A stretch of 64,000 nt of DNA, taken from positions 62,001 through 126,000 of the forward strand of contig JANYDS010000096.1 in assembly GCA_025363475.1 (NCBI GenBank). The letters run 5' to 3'. This stretch comes from Terriglobia bacterium (GTDB lineage: Bacteria > Acidobacteriota > Terriglobia > Bryobacterales > Bryobacteraceae). A program made the translations under genes and the position numbers. Below are positions 47,780-54,434 of the stretch, piece by piece (positions within the stretch are counted from its first letter, which is position 1; each line of letters opens with the position of its first letter). The notes below the pieces were generated by a model that was not told where the DNA came from, ran no database searches, and was given only the letters and a program-made list of their open reading frames with translations.

Positions 47780-49897
47780 TTAGAAACGTTCCCGCTTCTC
47801 CAGATGCTGCTCAATATCTTTCCGCTCGCGTAAGACCGGGAGCAGTTTTTTATCCGAAAGCATCTGCAGTTCATCCCCGAGATGCGGACTGCCCGGCTGG
47901 CTTGCATTGCCATATCCCAGCAGGCAGGAGGCTTTCTGCGGAGAGCCAAATTCAATAGCGCAAACGATGGTTTCGCCATGCGCGGCGTAATATTTATTAC
48001 CTTCCTTCCGGGTAAACGCAATGGTGCGGAAGATTCCCATACCGCCTGCGCCGCCATTCCCTGGCACGTCAGAAGTACCGCTGGCATAACGGTAAACATC
48101 GCCCCACTTTATATCGAGCGCACCGTACGTTTTCTTCACTTCAACCGCGGCTGTCTCCAGCACTTTGAGTGCACCCGCCGGATCATTCAAGCCATAGGCC
48201 GATTCCAGCGGTTTCGCAGGGTCATACTTCACTTTCATCTTGTTCGCAATCCCGCCCGGGCCTTTGAAATAGGCATCCGCAAAGGCCTGAAACAGGACGC
48301 CACCGCGGCTGCCCACTTCAGTCATCCGGTCCCATTTATCGAGTACGCTGGCCGCTTCCGACCTGGCTCCCGATATACCCCCTGCCGCTTTCAGCAAATC
48401 CGGCAGCACCTTATCCGCCAGCTCCATCCGCGTGGAATGAAGATTCGCCACGAACTGGTCATACGTGGTCGGCTTATGCTCGTTAATCAAACGTAGTGAG
48501 CGCAGCGTCCGCATCTGCGGCTGTTCCTCACCGGTGGGTGCAACGTAGGCGGCATATTTCGTCCGGTCCAGCTGCGGAAATGTGGATGTCCAGGGCGGCT
48601 CATTCGTATTCTGATTCCAGCCCGATTTAGGATCAACCGATTTGGGAAGTTCGTCAAAACTCAGATAATCGTTCCACATCGTTGCCGAGGTATCGCCCGG
48701 CACGACCTTTGACCAGTAGGCGAAATCACCTTTCTTGCGCCGGGGCACGAGACCATCGAACACCAGCATTAAATGCCCATCGGCATCCGCGTAATCGGCA
48801 TTCCACATGGGCACCGACATCATCTTCATGGCTGCCGTGAATTCCGTCAGATTTTTCGCTTCGCCCATGCGGAACCACTGCTCCAGCATCTTCGGGCGGT
48901 CAAGACCCGCTACGCGCATGGCCACCGTCACGCCTTTGTCGTCAAAGACAACCGGACCCTGAATACTGCGGCGCACGTCGAGCTTTTCTTCCTTGAATGA
49001 CCCATTGGGCTGTTTGATCTTGAGCGTCTTTGTCTCATGTTCGAACGGCATCAGCTTGCCGTCATATTCGTACTGCCCGTTCTTCACGGTCAGCTTGTAG
49101 AAATCCACGGTATCGATGGTGTTGACGGTGCGGCCCCAGCCCGCAGTCCGGTTGAACCCCACTACCGGCACCGGGAAACCGATCTGCGGAGCCCCAAACA
49201 GGTCATAACCGGGGCCCACCAGATGCACCTGCATATATCGATAGAAAGTATCGCCCCAGGCGAGGTGCGGATTGATGAGCAGCATCGCCTTGCCGCTGGC
49301 CGAAAGTGACGGCCCAATTGCCCAGGTATTTGAACCCGGGTGTTGATCCTGTTCGGAGAGCTTCGGTACATCGAGCAGGGCCACTTGCGTGCCCTTCAGC
49401 ATCGCGTTCACTTCGCGCTGCATGCGTTCGCGAGACGCCATATACATATAGTGCACAGCGCGGAGAGAATGCCCCACGACATCGACGCCGGTGACGGGCA
49501 GCACCACCTTATATTCTGCGCCGATGGCTTCAGGATGCGCTTTGGCGAAATCGTTAATCCCGCCGGCGAACGCATCCATATATTTGCGGAAGGTGGGGTC
49601 CTGGGCGGCGTACCACTGCTTCGCACGATCGGGCACGCCGTTGAGCTGGACCCAGCGATCGAGCTCAATATTTGAGGGCCCCCAGTACTCCGCTGCGCGT
49701 CCGCGCGATTCGCCGTAGAGCTTCAGCAGGAGATTGGCCTGATTCTGCATCTGGGCGTAACCGTGCGCCCGGAACATGGCCTCGCGGTCAGTGGCGAAGA
49801 TGTGAGGAATCCCGTAGGTATCCCAGAGGATTTCGGTTTTGTCTGCGGCGAAGAGCGACGGGGCCAACATGAGGAGGAGAAGGGAGAGGGCGCGCAT
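47780..49897 (-). CDS. Secreted penicillin/acyl-homoserine-lactone acylase family protein
   Basis: Ntn-hydrolase precursor of 705 residues with a signal peptide (MRALSLLLLMLAPSLFA). The self-cleavage site and nucleophile are in HPGSNTWAIGP (Ser189), giving a small alpha chain and a large beta chain. NPHLAWGDTFYRY, GFNRTAGWGRTVN and NTNEPPW are further family blocks. Substrates of such enzymes range from penicillins to acyl-homoserine lactones; none can be selected. A helically phased TTAGG array lies 79-136 bases upstream of its start. Confidence 0.9.
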   Translation of the reverse strand: MRALSLLLLMLAPSLFAADKTEILWDTYGIPHIFATDREAMFRAHGYAQMQNQANLLLKLYGESRGRAAEYWGPSNIELDRWVQLNGVPDRAKQWYAAQDPTFRKYMDAFAGGINDFAKAHPEAIGAEYKVVLPVTGVDVVGHSLRAVHYMYMASRERMQREVNAMLKGTQVALLDVPKLSEQDQHPGSNTWAIGPSLSASGKAMLLINPHLAWGDTFYRYMQVHLVGPGYDLFGAPQIGFPVPVVGFNRTAGWGRTVNTIDTVDFYKLTVKNGQYEYDGKLMPFEHETKTLKIKQPNGSFKEEKLDVRRSIQGPVVFDDKGVTVAMRVAGLDRPKMLEQWFRMGEAKNLTEFTAAMKMMSVPMWNADYADADGHLMLVFDGLVPRRKKGDFAYWSKVVPGDTSATMWNDYLSFDELPKSVDPKSGWNQNTNEPPWTSTFPQLDRTKYAAYVAPTGEEQPQMRTLRSLRLINEHKPTTYDQFVANLHSTRMELADKVLPDLLKAAGGISGARSEAASVLDKWDRMTEVGSRGGVLFQAFADAYFKGPGGIANKMKVKYDPAKPLESAYGLNDPAGALKVLETAAVEVKKTYGALDIKWGDVYRYASGTSDVPGNGGAGGMGIFRTIAFTRKEGNKYYAAHGETIVCAIEFGSPQKASCLLGYGNASQPGSPHLGDELQMLSDKKLLPVLRERKDIEQHLEKRERF

Positions 49898-50498
49898 AGT
49901 CGGCGTTAGTCTATCAAGAATCCGCTGTCGTGGTGGGGCGAGGAGATCGCGACTGGCGATTCGAGGCCTGAATTTTTAGGATCGGATTAGCATATTTTAG
50001 GACCGGATTAGGATATTTTAGGATCCTTTTAGGATGGTTTTGGCCTATCCTACTTTTGTGTTTCGTGGCGCTAACTGGTTTTAAATCATAGGGGCAGAGG
50101 GTTTTCCGGCCTGTGGAAATTAGGATCAAATGGTGAATTTAGTGTTTTTTGTTTCCTCTCCCCGGTTTGCCCCTGATTTGCCAGGGTTGTCGAGGGTTGA
50201 ATATTCAATTGTCAAAGAGCGCGCGGCCGGAGCACTTTTCAGGGACGGCTGCAAATCGCACGGGTTAGTGAGCGATTTCTGGCTGGACAATACCATGCTG
50301 GACCAAGAAACGGGGCGGAGTGGGGCTGGACAAGCGGCTTGCGGCGTTGTGTTGCAACAGGATAGAAATATTTCTACGATTTGTGACTCTCCAACGACAG
50401 GAAGTCGAAATAGAAGAGTCCGCCTTGCTCTTGCCAACTCCCCCCGTAATCCCGTCGATATATAGCGAACAAATGGCGAATATGATATCTTACTCTCC
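49898..50498. other. Intergenic region with phased repeat, no convincing gene
   Basis: About 600 bases, more AT-rich than the surroundings, between the acylase (-) and the restriction-modification unit (+). It holds the TTAGG array (49976-50033) and one further TTAGGATC near 50121. Frames of 111 and 124 codons on the two strands (50130-50500) show no family signature and no ribosome site and are not called. It may mark the left edge of a transferred island. Confidence 0.6.
49976..50033. repeat. Helically phased TTAGG array (six copies)
   Basis: TTAGG (one copy TTAGC) starts at 49976, 49987, 49997, 50008, 50018 and 50029, giving alternating 11- and 10-base spacing, close to one DNA turn. Copies form a 21-base unit repeated about 2.7 times: the first two units are nearly identical, the third is diverged. 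All copies therefore face the same side of the helix, as expected for a cooperative protein-binding or bent-DNA site. Confidence 0.85.
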
Positions 50499-50768
50499 AT
50501 GGCAAACTACGTCGAGCCTCAACGCCCAAGAATAATTGTTCGCTTGGCGCCATTGTGGCGCCATAATACATTTGTGAACACTGTTGTTTCGGAAGGCAAA
50601 GTTCGCCAGAACCTCCGCCTCGACCCGGATTTATGGTCTGCAATCGATACAGATCGGGCAAAGCGCCCTGGCAACATCTCCCGCAACACATGGATAACCG
50701 AAGCCATACTTGACAAGCTGGCGCGGCAGGCAGCACCCAATCAAAACGCAAGAGACCGGAATGCCTGA
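50499..50768 (+). CDS. Small ribbon-helix-helix DNA-binding protein, probable regulator of the R-M genes
   Basis: 89 residues if started at ATG 50499. A ribbon-helix-helix fold is visible at about residues 35-77: KVRQNLRLDPDLWSAID then ISRNTWITEAILDKLARQ. Such proteins bind operators as dimers. The first 25 codons are not family-like and contain two palindromes, so GTG 50574 (64 residues, six bases after CATAAT, hence leaderless) is an equally good start. It overlaps the methyltransferase gene by eight bases, so the two are coupled. It could be a controller of methylase and nuclease, or an antitoxin-like protein. Confidence 0.65.
   Translation: MANYVEPQRPRIIVRLAPLWRHNTFVNTVVSEGKVRQNLRLDPDLWSAIDTDRAKRPGNISRNTWITEAILDKLARQAAPNQNARDRNA
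50545..50563. promoter_or_regulatory. Paired TGGCGCCA palindromes, candidate operator
   Basis: Two perfect 8-bp palindromes, TGGCGCCA, at 50545-50552 and 50556-50563, exactly 11 bases apart. The second overlaps a CATAAT (50562-50567) that could serve as -10 for a start at GTG 50574. The arrangement resembles operators that a dimeric autoregulator covers side by side. The -35 is weak. Confidence 0.5.
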
Positions 50769-51906
50769 CTTCTACGAATTCTTCGCGGGCGGTGGCATGG
50801 TGCGAGCTGGGCTCGGCCCTAACTGGACGTGTCTTTTTGCCAACGACTTCGATCACAAGAAGAGCCGTGTCTACCGCGAGAATTGGGGTGAACACGAACT
50901 CAAGACCGATGATGTCGGCATCCTCAAGCCTTCCGATCTTCCGGGCCAGCCCGATTTAGTTTGGGCATCGTTTCCGTGCCAAGACCTTTCGCTGGCGGGT
51001 GGCGGCGCTGGACTCAAGGGCAACCGCTCCGGCACATTCTGGCCGTTCTGGCGACTGATGAAGGCACAGATTGCAGAGCAACGGGCACCCGACATGATCG
51101 TCCTCGAAAACGTTTGCGGAACGCTTACATCACACGAGGGAAAGGACTTCACAACCATTTGCGATGCTGTCGCAGATGAGGGCTATTCGGTTGGAGCGAT
51201 TGTAGTTGATGCGGCTCTGTTTGTTCCCCACTCAAGGCCCCGCCTTTTTGTGGTGTGCGTCCGCGCTACAGCCGCGATTCCGCACACATGCATTTCGGAC
51301 GAGCCAGCATTTCCGTTTCATACAAAGGCGCTGCGGACTGCGTATGAGAGACTGCCTGCGCGAACTCGACGATCATGGATATGGTGGAACCTGGCTAAAC
51401 CGCCTGCCCGCGAGACATCGCTCAGCGATCTGATTGAAGACCACCCCTCCGACGTCCGCTGGTTCACCGCAGACGAAACCCTGCGACTGGTAGCAAAGAT
51501 GAGCAACCTCAACAAGGAGAAGCTTGCTCAAGCAAAGCTCGAAGGGCGACGTATTGTTGGAGGCCTGTACAGGCGAACCAGACAGGATGAGTTCGGATGC
51601 AAGGTTCAGCGCGCGGAGATTCGATTCGACGATATTTCCGGTTGCCTGAGGACACCCGCTGGCGGCTCCAGTCGGCAGGTCATTTTAGTTGTGGAAGGGG
51701 AATCTGTGAAGGCCCGTCTGATCTCCGGTCGCGAGACCGCCCGGTTGATGGGGCTGCCTGATGCGTATATGCTCCCCAAAAACTATAACGAGGCGTACCA
51801 TCTCACTGGGGACGGTGTCGTGGTCCCAGTCGTGAGGCACCTAGCGCACTGCATCTTCGAGCCAGTTATAGACTTGACGGAAGTGAGAGCCAGCGTCGCT
51901 GCATGA
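50761..51906 (+). CDS. DNA (cytosine-5) methyltransferase
   Basis: 381 residues. Motif I is FYEFFAGGGMVRAGLG, motif IV FPCQDLSLAGGG with catalytic Cys73, motif VI VLENVCG (Glu116), motif VIII HSRPRLFVV, and motif X GDGVVVPVVRHLA. The recognition region between VIII and X is about 180 residues, enough for one target domain. ATG 50761 begins the conserved fold; the frame is open from 50710. It overlaps both its neighbours (eight bases with the RHH gene, ATGA with the next gene). It probably protects host DNA from the downstream nuclease. The target sequence is unknown. Confidence 0.92.
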   Translation: MPDFYEFFAGGGMVRAGLGPNWTCLFANDFDHKKSRVYRENWGEHELKTDDVGILKPSDLPGQPDLVWASFPCQDLSLAGGGAGLKGNRSGTFWPFWRLMKAQIAEQRAPDMIVLENVCGTLTSHEGKDFTTICDAVADEGYSVGAIVVDAALFVPHSRPRLFVVCVRATAAIPHTCISDEPAFPFHTKALRTAYERLPARTRRSWIWWNLAKPPARETSLSDLIEDHPSDVRWFTADETLRLVAKMSNLNKEKLAQAKLEGRRIVGGLYRRTRQDEFGCKVQRAEIRFDDISGCLRTPAGGSSRQVILVVEGESVKARLISGRETARLMGLPDAYMLPKNYNEAYHLTGDGVVVPVVRHLAHCIFEPVIDLTEVRASVAA

Positions 51907-52760
51907 GCGTAATACCGTGCGAACTGAATACGAACCTGCGCCGCATCGTCGGTGAGTATTCAGAAGTACTCAAGACCGAAGCGCACACGCTCGGCAATCA
52001 CGGATTGGATGAGAAAGAGTTCTATAACAGCGGCATTTTTCGTGGTGCGATAGAGCAGATTCGGGGAGAGTTTTCAGCCACCATGAGCGAGAAGCGCGAA
52101 TTTGTAACCGCGATTCTCAATTTCATGGAGGACCAGGGCTTCATTGATGGCTGGGAATCGGCAGGAGAAGCCAACCGCCATGACTACTCGGTCACGCTGC
52201 GGGACGGCCGCATCGCTATTATCGAACTCAAGGGGTGCATGGACGGGAACAACACGATCATCTTTGAGCGGCCTCCACATGCCCAGGAATTCATTATCTG
52301 GAGTGTTTGCAGCAACCCCGGCTCCGACCCACGCCATAATGCCTGGTCAGGCATCCATACAAGGTTGAGCGCAGACATAATCGAGCGTGAGCAGCAAGTG
52401 GATGGCGTCATCATCTGGGATATGGTTTGCAGCACCCTGGGTCGCGCCTGCCCGAAGGTAGTGGCCGATCCCGACAGAATCACCCGTGTCTCACACTATG
52501 AGCTGCCGCCTCCCTGTATTTACGTCTTTCCGGCCACCATCGCAAGCCCTCGCAACAATCCAAAGCCGCTTGCCCAGCCGCTTGAGCGTACCCACCTTTT
52601 GAAAGCATTCCACGACTGTTTCGGAGGTCGACCTGAAGAGGTGAACTACGTCGATTTCGAGGTTGAACATAGAGGCACCGACACCGTTCGGCGCACTCGG
52701 GTTCGTCGGGGTGGACAAATTGTACGAGAATCTCGGTTGATAGCTATCCGCCGAGTTTAA
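51903..52760 (+). CDS. Candidate restriction endonuclease (PD-(D/E)XK-like), unrecognised family
   Basis: 285 residues with no signal or membrane segment. A nuclease-like signature lies in RHDYSVTL (Asp94) followed 14 residues later by IAIIELKG (Glu108, Lys110), on predicted beta-strands, as in PD-(D/E)XK enzymes. The N-terminal 70 residues are helical; the C-terminal part ends in a basic stretch (RTRVRRGGQIVRESR) suited to DNA contact. Its start overlaps the methyltransferase stop by ATGA. Neighbourhood and signature together point to a type II restriction enzyme, but I recognise no specific family. It could instead be an accessory nuclease. Confidence 0.62.
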   Translation: MSVIPCELNTNLRRIVGEYSEVLKTEAHTLGNHGLDEKEFYNSGIFRGAIEQIRGEFSATMSEKREFVTAILNFMEDQGFIDGWESAGEANRHDYSVTLRDGRIAIIELKGCMDGNNTIIFERPPHAQEFIIWSVCSNPGSDPRHNAWSGIHTRLSADIIEREQQVDGVIIWDMVCSTLGRACPKVVADPDRITRVSHYELPPPCIYVFPATIASPRNNPKPLAQPLERTHLLKAFHDCFGGRPEEVNYVDFEVEHRGTDTVRRTRVRRGGQIVRESRLIAIRRV

Positions 52761-52973: not shown

Positions 52974-54434
52974 TCATGCATAGCGAAACAGTGTTTTGAA
53001 GCCGTAATCCATGTGGTGTTGGATATGGCAGTGAAATAAGGTCAGGCCCGGCTGGTCCGCCGTAAAATCTACGCTTGCGCGGCCATATGTGGGCACCATC
53101 ACCGTATCCTTGATGATGCCCGATGTTGCCTTGCCATAGATCTCCGTAATTTCGAACTGATGTCTGTGCAGGTGCATCGGATGGGCGTCGTCAGTTCGGT
53201 TGTGAAACGTCAGCCTGTAACGCGTGCCCTGTTTGAGCACAAACTCCTGCTCGTGCGGATACGGTTTGCCGTTTACCGTAAAACTGTTGAACTTGCCCGC
53301 ACCGCGCGGTATTTTTTCAAAAATCATTTCCAGCTTTTCTGTCGGTGCCTGTGCCTGTGATGACTGCGGCTTGCCGAACCGCGTATAGTCCCAGAACGAA
53401 CGGGGTGGAGGCGTCCACTGCGGGGTGCGACGCTGGTTGGCGTATTCGATCACAATGCCCAGGCCCCCCTCACGCACCGGGTCTTCGGGCGCGCCCATAA
53501 TCCATACCCCCGCACGGTCCATGGTTACCCACGCATCAATACGCTCCCCCGGGCCGAGCATCAACACATCCACGGCGGCCGGCACCGGCACCGGGTTCCC
53601 GTCCAGCGCAATCACGTTGAACTTATGACCCGGGAGGGCGATGTGACGGCTCTCGATCGCGCTGGCATTCAAAAAATGGAACATCACGCGTTCGCCGGTA
53701 CGGACGCGGATCGGCTCTCCGGCTCCAAGCGCCTTGTCATTGATAGAGAAGATATCTGCCGTCACCTCCATCCCCGGCGGCCGGGTATCGAGCACATCCG
53801 GTTTTTCCGGCCTTGGCAGCCCAGGGTCGAGATCGTCGTTATCCATCAGCTGGTTGGTGAAATACGGCTCCCAGTCGCGGAGGGCCAGGTAGTGTTCCTG
53901 ATCGAAGTTGCCCGGATCGCGGGTGCCCTCGACAATTAAGAAGCCGAACATCCCCGTATAGCTGCCGCGATGCAGGTCGTCCATAGACATGGTGTGGGTG
54001 TGGTACCAGCGGGTGCCGGCGGGCGTCGGAGTGAAGTGGTACGTGCGCTTACCGCGGGGAGGCACCACGGGGGTCCCTTCCTCCTCCGAGCCGTCCACAT
54101 CAGAAGGAATCAGCAAACCGTGAAAGTGGACGTACTCGGGCACGTCTGTGTCGTTGACGACGTTGACCGTGACGGGCACGCCTTCCTTCATTCTCAGCCG
54201 GGGTCCCGGGGAGGTGCCGTTGTAGCCGATCGTGCTGACAATGCGATTGGGTGCCAGTTCCACCGTGACCGGAGCGATTTGCAGGGTGAACTCGGGGCCG
54301 GAAAGTTCTGCCAGACCGGCTGTCGATGGCAAGGCCCGCATGGGCATCTGACTCTGCTGGGCAGCACTGTCGGTAGCCAGCGACGTTCCCGCGGCGGTGA
54401 GCGCCGTGAGTTGGAGGAATTCTCGTCTTTGCAT
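52974..54434 (-). CDS. Tat-exported multicopper oxidase
   Basis: 486 residues; the N-terminus MQRREFLQLTALTAAG is a twin-arginine signal. Copper ligands of all sites are present: YVHFHG, TRWYHTHTMS, DAHPMHLHRHQF and the type 1 site FHCHIQHHMDYG. The next position after the type 1 His suggests Met or none as axial ligand. Three cupredoxin domains are expected. Roles in this family include copper or phenol oxidation; a Met-rich loop typical of CueO is absent. The gene converges on the R-M island and is divergent from a DUF4159 gene. Confidence 0.93.
   Translation of the reverse strand: MQRREFLQLTALTAAGTSLATDSAAQQSQMPMRALPSTAGLAELSGPEFTLQIAPVTVELAPNRIVSTIGYNGTSPGPRLRMKEGVPVTVNVVNDTDVPEYVHFHGLLIPSDVDGSEEEGTPVVPPRGKRTYHFTPTPAGTRWYHTHTMSMDDLHRGSYTGMFGFLIVEGTRDPGNFDQEHYLALRDWEPYFTNQLMDNDDLDPGLPRPEKPDVLDTRPPGMEVTADIFSINDKALGAGEPIRVRTGERVMFHFLNASAIESRHIALPGHKFNVIALDGNPVPVPAAVDVLMLGPGERIDAWVTMDRAGVWIMGAPEDPVREGGLGIVIEYANQRRTPQWTPPPRSFWDYTRFGKPQSSQAQAPTEKLEMIFEKIPRGAGKFNSFTVNGKPYPHEQEFVLKQGTRYRLTFHNRTDDAHPMHLHRHQFEITEIYGKATSGIIKDTVMVPTYGRASVDFTADQPGLTLFHCHIQHHMDYGFKTLFRYA

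What the first reader, a model, noticed from the sequence alone, without database searches (positions are those of the whole stretch)
50499..52760. Compact three-gene unit: RHH protein, C5 methyltransferase and an unrecognised D...ExK protein
The three genes overlap by eight and four bases, so they are translated as one unit. The methyltransferase motifs are complete. The last protein has Asp94 and Glu108-x-Lys110 on predicted strands but no family I can name. A ribbon-helix-helix regulator in place of the usual HTH C-protein would be unusual for a restriction-modification system. The unit sits in a segment with different base composition between housekeeping-like genes, suggesting transfer.
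Basis: partly seen in the sequence, partly recalled or inferred. Interest (0 to 1): 0.75.

Follow-up and report, generated by a model that had tools for sequence, protein, structure and literature searches.

The report
KasI-like restriction unit with self-target operator
This is a three-gene bacterial restriction-modification (DNA immune) unit whose cutting enzyme belongs to the family of the known enzyme KasI, and in front of its small regulator gene lie two copies of what is probably the unit's own target sequence, which suggests a regulator that could read the same DNA mark the unit writes.

Summary
In detail: three + strand genes overlapping by 8 and 4 bases. The "unrecognised" 285-aa protein is a KasI-family type II restriction endonuclease: PADLOC REase_II matches its whole length (E 3e-132), and its 65%-identical relative in phage AH2 is in print as 64% identical to KasI (GGCGCC). 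D94, E108 and K110 are invariant in 68 of 68 aligned sequences; a C5 MTase lies immediately upstream in 112 of 114 loci with enough sequence. That part is a new member of a known kind.

The new point lies upstream. Two GGCGCC boxes 11 bp apart (50546-50551, 50557-50562) precede the RHH gene, which probably starts at GTG 50574. The exact pair occurs in 14 of 18 KasI-type loci with this RHH type, 0 of 94 others, and nowhere else in 997 kb of the same loci. It also heads MTase+DUF4928 units that carry this RHH (7 of 8), and is missing from two that lack it.

Best reading: the RHH is a dedicated autoregulator whose operator consists of the system's own target sites, so methylation could gate it. 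The RHH-operator link is well supported by comparison; methylation sensing is untested, and five units with another RHH type use boxes that are not GGCGCC.

The parts
50546..50551 (.). GGCGCC box 1 (in TGGCGCCA): probable RHH operator half and probable target site of the unit itself
   Evidence: Pair 11 bp apart conserved in 20 of 25 loci with this RHH type; 14 of 18 against 0 of 94. The window's only two GGCGCC sites less than 100 bp apart
50557..50562 (.). GGCGCC box 2
   Evidence: As box 1
50539..50567 (+). Tentative core promoter: -35 TTCGCT (50539-50544), 17-bp spacer holding the boxes, -10 CATAAT (50562-50567)
   Evidence: Read by eye; the consensus scan did not list it, so weak
50574..50768 (+). 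RHH regulator, type A (SRNTW motif), probable true extent from GTG 50574 (listed ORF 50499-50768)
   Evidence: phrog_13890 E 1.5e-11; no Pfam hit itself; 5 of 16 aligned relatives hit Pfam RHH_1, best E 5.4e-4; invariant R36, R40, S61-R62-N63-T64-W65
50761..51906 (+). C5 cytosine DNA methyltransferase (M.KasI-like)
   Evidence: PF00145, TIGR00675; 65% identical to AH2 gp35
51903..52760 (+). KasI-family type II restriction endonuclease, 285 aa; D94, E108, K110
   Evidence: PADLOC PDLC03501 REase_II E 3.2e-132, residues 1-284; phrog_31486 E 1.4e-141; 68 of 68 invariant catalytic residues; model m53e91c762de1

Best explanation
A KasI-type (probable target GGCGCC) type II RM operon: RHH regulator - C5 MTase - REase, translated as one coupled unit. 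The MTase methylates GGCGCC in the host genome and the REase cuts unmethylated incoming DNA. The RHH protein is a dedicated autoregulator in the place of an HTH C protein: two RHH dimers bind two TGGCGCCA boxes one helical turn apart in the operon's own promoter and, because the boxes overlap the core promoter, most likely repress it. As the boxes are the system's own target sites, the MTase should methylate them, so regulator binding and MTase/REase action meet on the same bases. Shown here by sequence: gene order, families, the paired boxes, and their strict link with this RHH type. Taken from print plus homology: the KasI relation and GGCGCC. Inferred: binding, repression, any effect of methylation.
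For: REase: full-length PADLOC REase_II E 3.2e-132; 65% identity to AH2 gp34, which PMC3483164 (passages) gives as 64% identical to KasI, with gp35 like M.KasI; KasI = GGCGCC in PMC3724700 (passage); D94/E108/K110 in 68 of 68; MTase directly upstream in 112 of 114 loci; MTase and REase trees agree (Mantel r 0.53, 0 of 2000 permutations as high, 110 loci). Operator: GGCGCC-N5-GGCGCC in 14 of 18 KasI-type loci with type-A RHH against 0 of 94 others (12 of 16 against 0 of 86 after removing near-copies), 0 in 997,220 bp of the rest of the same loci; of all 4096 hexamers and spacings 7-30, only GGCGCC at 11 and frame shifts of it pair up in 3 or more of 25 type-A loci (GGCGCC 20); only T-GGCGCC-A and GGCGCC are conserved among otherwise different flanks; 7 of 8 MTase+DUF4928 plasmid units with this RHH have the pair, while two DUF4928 units with the same MTase family but no RHH have none, so the boxes follow the RHH, not the MTase or REase. 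In L275 RHH and boxes are degenerate together.
Against: Specificity GGCGCC rests on 64-65% identity through one intermediate, not on an assay; KasI's own sequence was not at hand. The window RHH has no Pfam hit of its own, its model is weak (pLDDT 71.5) and structure search gave nothing. In 5 units with type-B RHH the boxes are TGCACCA/TGGTGTA/TGGTGCA, not GGCGCC, so a self-target operator is not needed for a KasI-type unit. Four of 18 type-A loci lack one exact box (L037, L100, L113, L114). Over all 102 non-redundant loci GGCGCC is not among the five most enriched upstream palindromes, as most loci lack the RHH. The 18-base pattern alone marks nothing: of 120 viral stretches with TGGCGCCANNNNGGCGCC one (L135, the contig of L118) has the RHH behind it. 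No good -35/-10 was found by the scan.
Confidence: 0.78

Rival explanations
1. The RHH is an ordinary autorepressor whose preferred box merely happens to coincide with GGCGCC; methylation of the boxes has no regulatory role.
For: Type-B RHH loci use related but non-palindromic boxes TGGTGTA/TGGTGCA, so TGGyG-type boxes may be what this RHH lineage binds anyway; some type-A loci keep half-changed boxes (TGGTGAG in L100, L113).
Against: In 20 of 25 type-A loci both boxes are the exact 6-bp target; a palindromic hexamer box matching one given target has prior odds near 1 in 64.
Confidence: 0.45
2. The MTase itself, not the RHH, is the regulator: its target sites in the promoter are methylated or bound as in CfrBI or LlaJI.
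For: Known mechanism: CfrBI, AhdI and LlaDII are regulated by promoter methylation (PMC12707154 passages); the LlaJI promoter holds two LlaJI sites (PMC1459862 passage).
Against: 94 KasI-type loci without type-A RHH have no pair, nor do two DUF4928 units with the same MTase family but no RHH.
Confidence: 0.12
3. Gene 3 is not an active endonuclease (decayed, or a partner protein).
For: No assay; structure matches are weak and tied with acetyl-CoA carboxylase rows (Z 5.8); broken copies of the REase exist in relatives (L010, L013, L014, L280).
Against: Intact frame with all 44 invariant family positions necessarily included, catalytic D/E/K kept in 68 of 68; best matches are mostly nucleases of the PD-(D/E)XK type (family names recalled).
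Confidence: 0.05

Closest known systems
KasI restriction-modification system (Kluyvera ascorbata; G^GCGCC, cut position recalled) and phage AH2 gp34/gp35
   Same: REase and MTase families (65% identity to AH2 gp34/gp35; AH2 to KasI 63-66% in PMC3483164, passages), MTase-then-REase order with 4-base overlap in AH2
   Different: AH2 has no RHH by profile and carries GIY-YIG and Vsr genes; the window has an RHH and paired GGCGCC boxes and no Vsr or GIY-YIG beside it
HTH C-protein-regulated RM systems (PvuII, BamHI; PMC12707154 section 13 read)
   Same: Small regulator gene first in the unit, autoregulation by tandem operator boxes (inferred here)
   Different: RHH instead of HTH fold; regulator sits before the MTase rather than only before the REase; operator is made of the probable target site
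Promoter-methylation-regulated RM systems (CfrBI, AhdI, LlaDII; LlaJI)
   Same: Own target sites in the own promoter
   Different: Here the sites follow a separate regulator protein and are missing when it is missing
M.EcoRII/M.SsoII dual-function MTases (passages)
   Same: Link between own regulation and target methylation: M.EcoRII represses only when its sites are methylated
   Different: Regulator is a separate RHH protein, not an HTH domain of the MTase
E. coli lexA operator holding a Dcm site (PMC9210283, abstract start seen in listing)
   Same: Transcription factor operator overlapping a C5 methylation site
   Different: Not an RM system's own regulator

Membership tests
KasI-family type II restriction endonuclease | Full-length sequence similarity to the family profile | tested here: met
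   PDLC03501 REase_II E 3.2e-132, residues 1-284 of 285; 65% identity to AH2 gp34, itself 64% to KasI in PMC3483164
KasI-family type II restriction endonuclease | Conserved D...E-x-K catalytic residues | tested here: met
   D94, E108, K110 invariant in 68 of 68
KasI-family type II restriction endonuclease | Partner C5 MTase next to it | tested here: met
   50761-51906; 112 of 114 loci
KasI-family type II restriction endonuclease | Cleaves GGCGCC | not testable with these tools
   Needs an assay. Genome counts do not decide: 915 GGCGCC in 4.16 Mb, but 6 of 18 genus relatives without the unit are as low, at or under about 250 per Mb
PD-(D/E)XK nuclease fold | Core fold match to solved members | tested here: inconclusive
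   Foldseek: no E <= 0.001, best SfsA, EcoO109I, AvaII; VIA best Z 5.8 BsmI, tied with acetyl-CoA carboxylase at 5.8
Ribbon-helix-helix regulator | RHH sequence family | tested here: inconclusive
   Window protein: no Pfam hit; 5 of 16 relatives hit RHH_1, best 5.4e-4. Type-B proteins pass the RHH_1 cut-off, 4 of 4
Ribbon-helix-helix regulator | Strand-helix-helix layout | tested here: inconclusive
   Model pLDDT 71.5: extended stretch, then helices 43-54 and 62-78; no structural match
HTH C protein (controller of RM systems) | HTH fold | tested here: not met
   No HTH family in Pfam for P0001; layout differs

The most novel reading that the evidence does not exclude
A methylation-sensing RM controller: the RHH protein reads the methylation state of the system's own target. 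Two GGCGCC boxes in the operon promoter are bound by RHH while unmethylated and released (or bound differently) once the unit's MTase has methylated them, so full expression of the operon, endonuclease included, waits until the cell's sites are protected. The RHH plus its boxes form an exchangeable control cassette that heads at least two unrelated restriction enzyme kinds served by the same MTase family.
Probability: 0.35. Interest if true: 0.75.

Novelty: new variant of a known kind. Interest (0 to 1): 0.5.

Why it matters
How an RM system delays its toxic nuclease until the new host's DNA is protected is the central control problem of type II systems. Tying expression directly to the presence and working of the MTase is called logical but 'apparently rarely used' in a 2025 review (PMC12707154, passage). 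A separate regulator whose operator is the target site itself would be a direct way to do so, and it is testable with a gel shift on methylated and unmethylated DNA. It also gives a sequence handle (RHH plus paired boxes) from which the target of uncharacterised units may be read off.

Tried and rejected
GGCGCC avoidance as a test of the target: own genome 915 sites (220 per Mb; control CCGCGG 1728), but 6 of 18 genus relatives lacking the unit lie at or under about 250 per Mb, three of them lower than the own genome (G014, G017, G018); in the window GGCGCC is 16 against 36.5 expected, seventh lowest of 64 palindromes. Inconclusive.

Palindrome enrichment upstream over all 102 non-redundant loci: GGCGCC not in the top five, because most loci lack the RHH.

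Empty site: the acylase-like gene at 47780-49897 and the oxidase-like gene at 52974-54434 have relatives in the genus, but the close ones lie on different contigs or places (e.g. G010 C120 and C20), so no empty site could be shown.

Type-A RHH outside RM units: 10 of 385 and 5 of 369 genomes of two classes have a match (each count includes the query genome itself; the rest are weak, best E 6.2e-11); of four of these looked at, three lie behind a ParA-like gene by eye (L259, L261, L268), one does not (L260). No type-A RHH in front of an MTase with a clearly different target was found, so the natural test (does the box follow the target?) was not available.

Structure: Foldseek and VIA gave only weak matches for the REase and none worth naming for the RHH; solved-structure sequence searches gave nothing significant. 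Methylomonas DH-1 MTase paper (PMC7720504, passages) concerns TGGCCA, not this system.

Literature: (open PMC library, capped listings) showed me no study of an RHH regulator of a type II RM system; I looked at passages of PMC3874152, PMC3346939, PMC13092281 and PMC10853773. That is not proof that none exists.

Full report
What is there. Three + strand genes at 50499-50768, 50761-51906 and 51903-52760 overlap by 8 and 4 bases. Gene 2 is a C5 DNA methyltransferase (PF00145 E 2.2e-44; TIGR00675 E 1.2e-40). GC of the genes is close to the window mean of 0.578; the dip (0.486) is in the 5' flank.

Gene 3 is not an orphan. It has no Pfam or NCBIfam family, but PADLOC's REase_II profile PDLC03501 matches residues 1-284 at E 3.2e-132 and phrog_31486 at E 1.4e-141. 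Relatives at 57-69% identity sit on plasmids and phages. One of them, gp34 of Burkholderia phage AH2 (65% identical to gene 3), is described in PMC3483164 as 64% identical to the restriction enzyme KasI, and the neighbouring gp35 as like M.KasI (passages). KasI recognises GGCGCC (PMC3724700, passage). So gene 3 is a KasI-family REase; that the target is GGCGCC is inferred through this one step. No sequence of a solved structure resembles it significantly.

Nuclease features. In an alignment of 68 sequences D94, E108 and K110 are invariant. The AlphaFold2 model is confident (pLDDT 89.4). Foldseek finds no match at E <= 0.001; the first rows are SfsA, EcoO109I and AvaII. The second look puts BsmI first at Z 5.8 (rmsd 3.4, 130 aligned), tied with acetyl-CoA carboxylase (Z 5.8), with Hjc, RecU, EcoRV and McrBC further down. 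Z under 8 can be mere arrangement, so the fold is suggested, not shown.

Do the genes travel together? From viral and genome collections (one search kept the best 80 of 99 genome loci; viral) plus annotated records I had 123 loci, 121 with a REase relative at 45% identity or more; 114 of these reach 1,300 bases upstream, and 112 of 114 have the MTase directly upstream on the same strand (near-copies not removed). The exceptions are L010, where an IS256 transposase gene lies between the split parts, and L055. MTase and REase distances correlate over 110 loci (Mantel r 0.53; 0 of 2000 permutations as high, maximum 0.157). Some loci add Vsr and GIY-YIG genes; the window does not.

The regulator. 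By a profile built from the first hits, 24 of 115 loci have an RHH-like gene just before the MTase. I split these by eye on protein sequence: type A (motif SRNTW; 18 loci, the window included), type B (motif VSVAWV; 5 loci) and one other. Type B passes Pfam's RHH_1 cut-off in 4 of 4 tested. Type A is more divergent: the window protein has no Pfam hit and 5 of 16 relatives hit RHH_1 weakly; its model shows an extended stretch and two helices at pLDDT 71.5, with no structural match. Several type-A homologues start about 12 residues before the strand RxNLRL, which places the window's start at GTG 50574.

The paired boxes. GGCGCC occurs 16 times in the window, and only two of these lie less than 100 bp apart: 50546 and 50557, immediately before GTG 50574. 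The same pair, exactly 11 bp apart, stands at the same place in other type-A loci. Among 112 KasI-type loci with usable upstream sequence the exact pair is found in 14 of 18 type-A loci and 0 of 94 others (12 of 16 and 0 of 86 without near-copies; Fisher p about 1e-12), and in none of the remaining 997,220 bp of these loci. The four exceptions (L037, L100, L113, L114) keep one exact box. Testing all 4096 hexamers at spacings of 7-30 in 25 type-A loci, only GGCGCC at 11 (20 loci) and its frame shifts pair up in 3 or more (the 25 leave out L011, L021 and L278 as near-copies). The only conserved columns are T-GGCGCC-A and the second GGCGCC.

A natural control. The same RHH type also heads a second RM kind on plasmids of Pseudomonas, Achromobacter, Serratia, Burkholderia and Azospirillum: MTase (57-61% identical to the window's) plus a DUF4928 protein that PADLOC calls REase_II (E 6e-43). 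Seven of these eight loci have the exact pair; in the eighth (L275) both boxes and RHH are degenerate. Two DUF4928 units from viral contigs with the same MTase family (57-60%) but no RHH have no pair (L292, L293). So the boxes follow the RHH, not the MTase or the nuclease: the simplest reading is that they are its operator. On the REase and MTase trees type A needs 9 and 10 changes (shuffled means 16.9 and 17.1), so the cassette has been gained or lost repeatedly.

How it most likely works. Inferred: RHH dimers use strand residues R36, N38 and R40 (window numbering; R36 and R40 invariant) to read the two boxes from one face of the DNA. The boxes fall between a weak -35 (TTCGCT) and a -10 (CATAAT), though the scan did not list this promoter, so binding should repress the operon. 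Since the boxes are the probable target of the unit's own MTase, they will be methylated in a modified cell, and methyl groups in the major groove could change binding. That would make the regulator a sensor of protection. This last step is not shown.

What speaks against the bold step. Type-B units use TGCACCA/TGGTGTA/TGGTGCA boxes, so a KasI-type unit can be controlled without self-target boxes. The pattern alone is common in large collections: of 120 viral stretches one has the RHH behind it, the contig already known. Site counts in the genome and genus do not confirm the target.

Comparison with print. A 2025 review (PMC12707154: passages, section 13 read) lists promoter methylation (CfrBI, AhdI, LlaDII), MTase repressors (Ecl18kI, SsoII, EcoRII) and C proteins as separate mechanisms; the term ribbon-helix-helix does not occur in its main text. 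The LlaJI promoter holds two LlaJI sites (PMC1459862, passage). The present arrangement, a separate RHH with an operator of target sites, would join two of these classes. My searches listed no such study, within an open-access library and capped lists.

Transfer. 0 of 18 genus relatives carry the unit; one genome of the order has a fragment of the REase (38 residues) beside MTase and Vsr genes. The nearest locus found is from an Acidobacteria MAG (71%). An empty site was not found.

Verdict. The RM unit itself is a new member of a known kind; the RHH with a self-target operator is a new variant worth a bench test.

Noticed in passing
L008:3935-7985 and L009:3914-7973: Distant relatives of the KasI-type REase (26% and 30% identity) stand first in operons with a second protein (ParB-like by annotation in L008) and an SNF2/DEAD helicase (best PADLOC match ZorD, E about 1e-18), with no MTase: possibly an undescribed defence system.
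   Followed up: partly
window 49974-50054: Direct repeats TTTTAGGATCGGATTAGCATA, spacing 21, 21 and 11, in the AT-richer flank before the unit; could mark an element boundary or a binding region.
   Followed up: no
L003, L050, L059, L073, L097 upstream of the RHH gene: Type-B RHH genes have their own conserved boxes, TGCACCA N3 TGGTGTAATGTGGTGCA and close variants, a likely operator of a different RHH lineage on the same RM kind.
   Followed up: partly
L016 (genome of the same order, G035): MTase (61%) and Vsr genes beside a fragment of the KasI-type REase (about 38 residues matched): probably a remnant unit that kept the MTase.
   Followed up: no
L259, L261, L268, L127: Weaker relatives of the type-A RHH lie behind ParA-like ATPase genes (judged by eye), which suggests a plasmid-partition origin of this regulator.
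   Followed up: partly
GGCGCC counts in the genus: GGCGCC is scarce (about 170-250 per Mb) in 7 of 19 genomes of the genus, only one of which carries this unit, and 5 to 6 times commoner in others; another GGCGCC-directed system or past exposure may be the cause.
   Followed up: no
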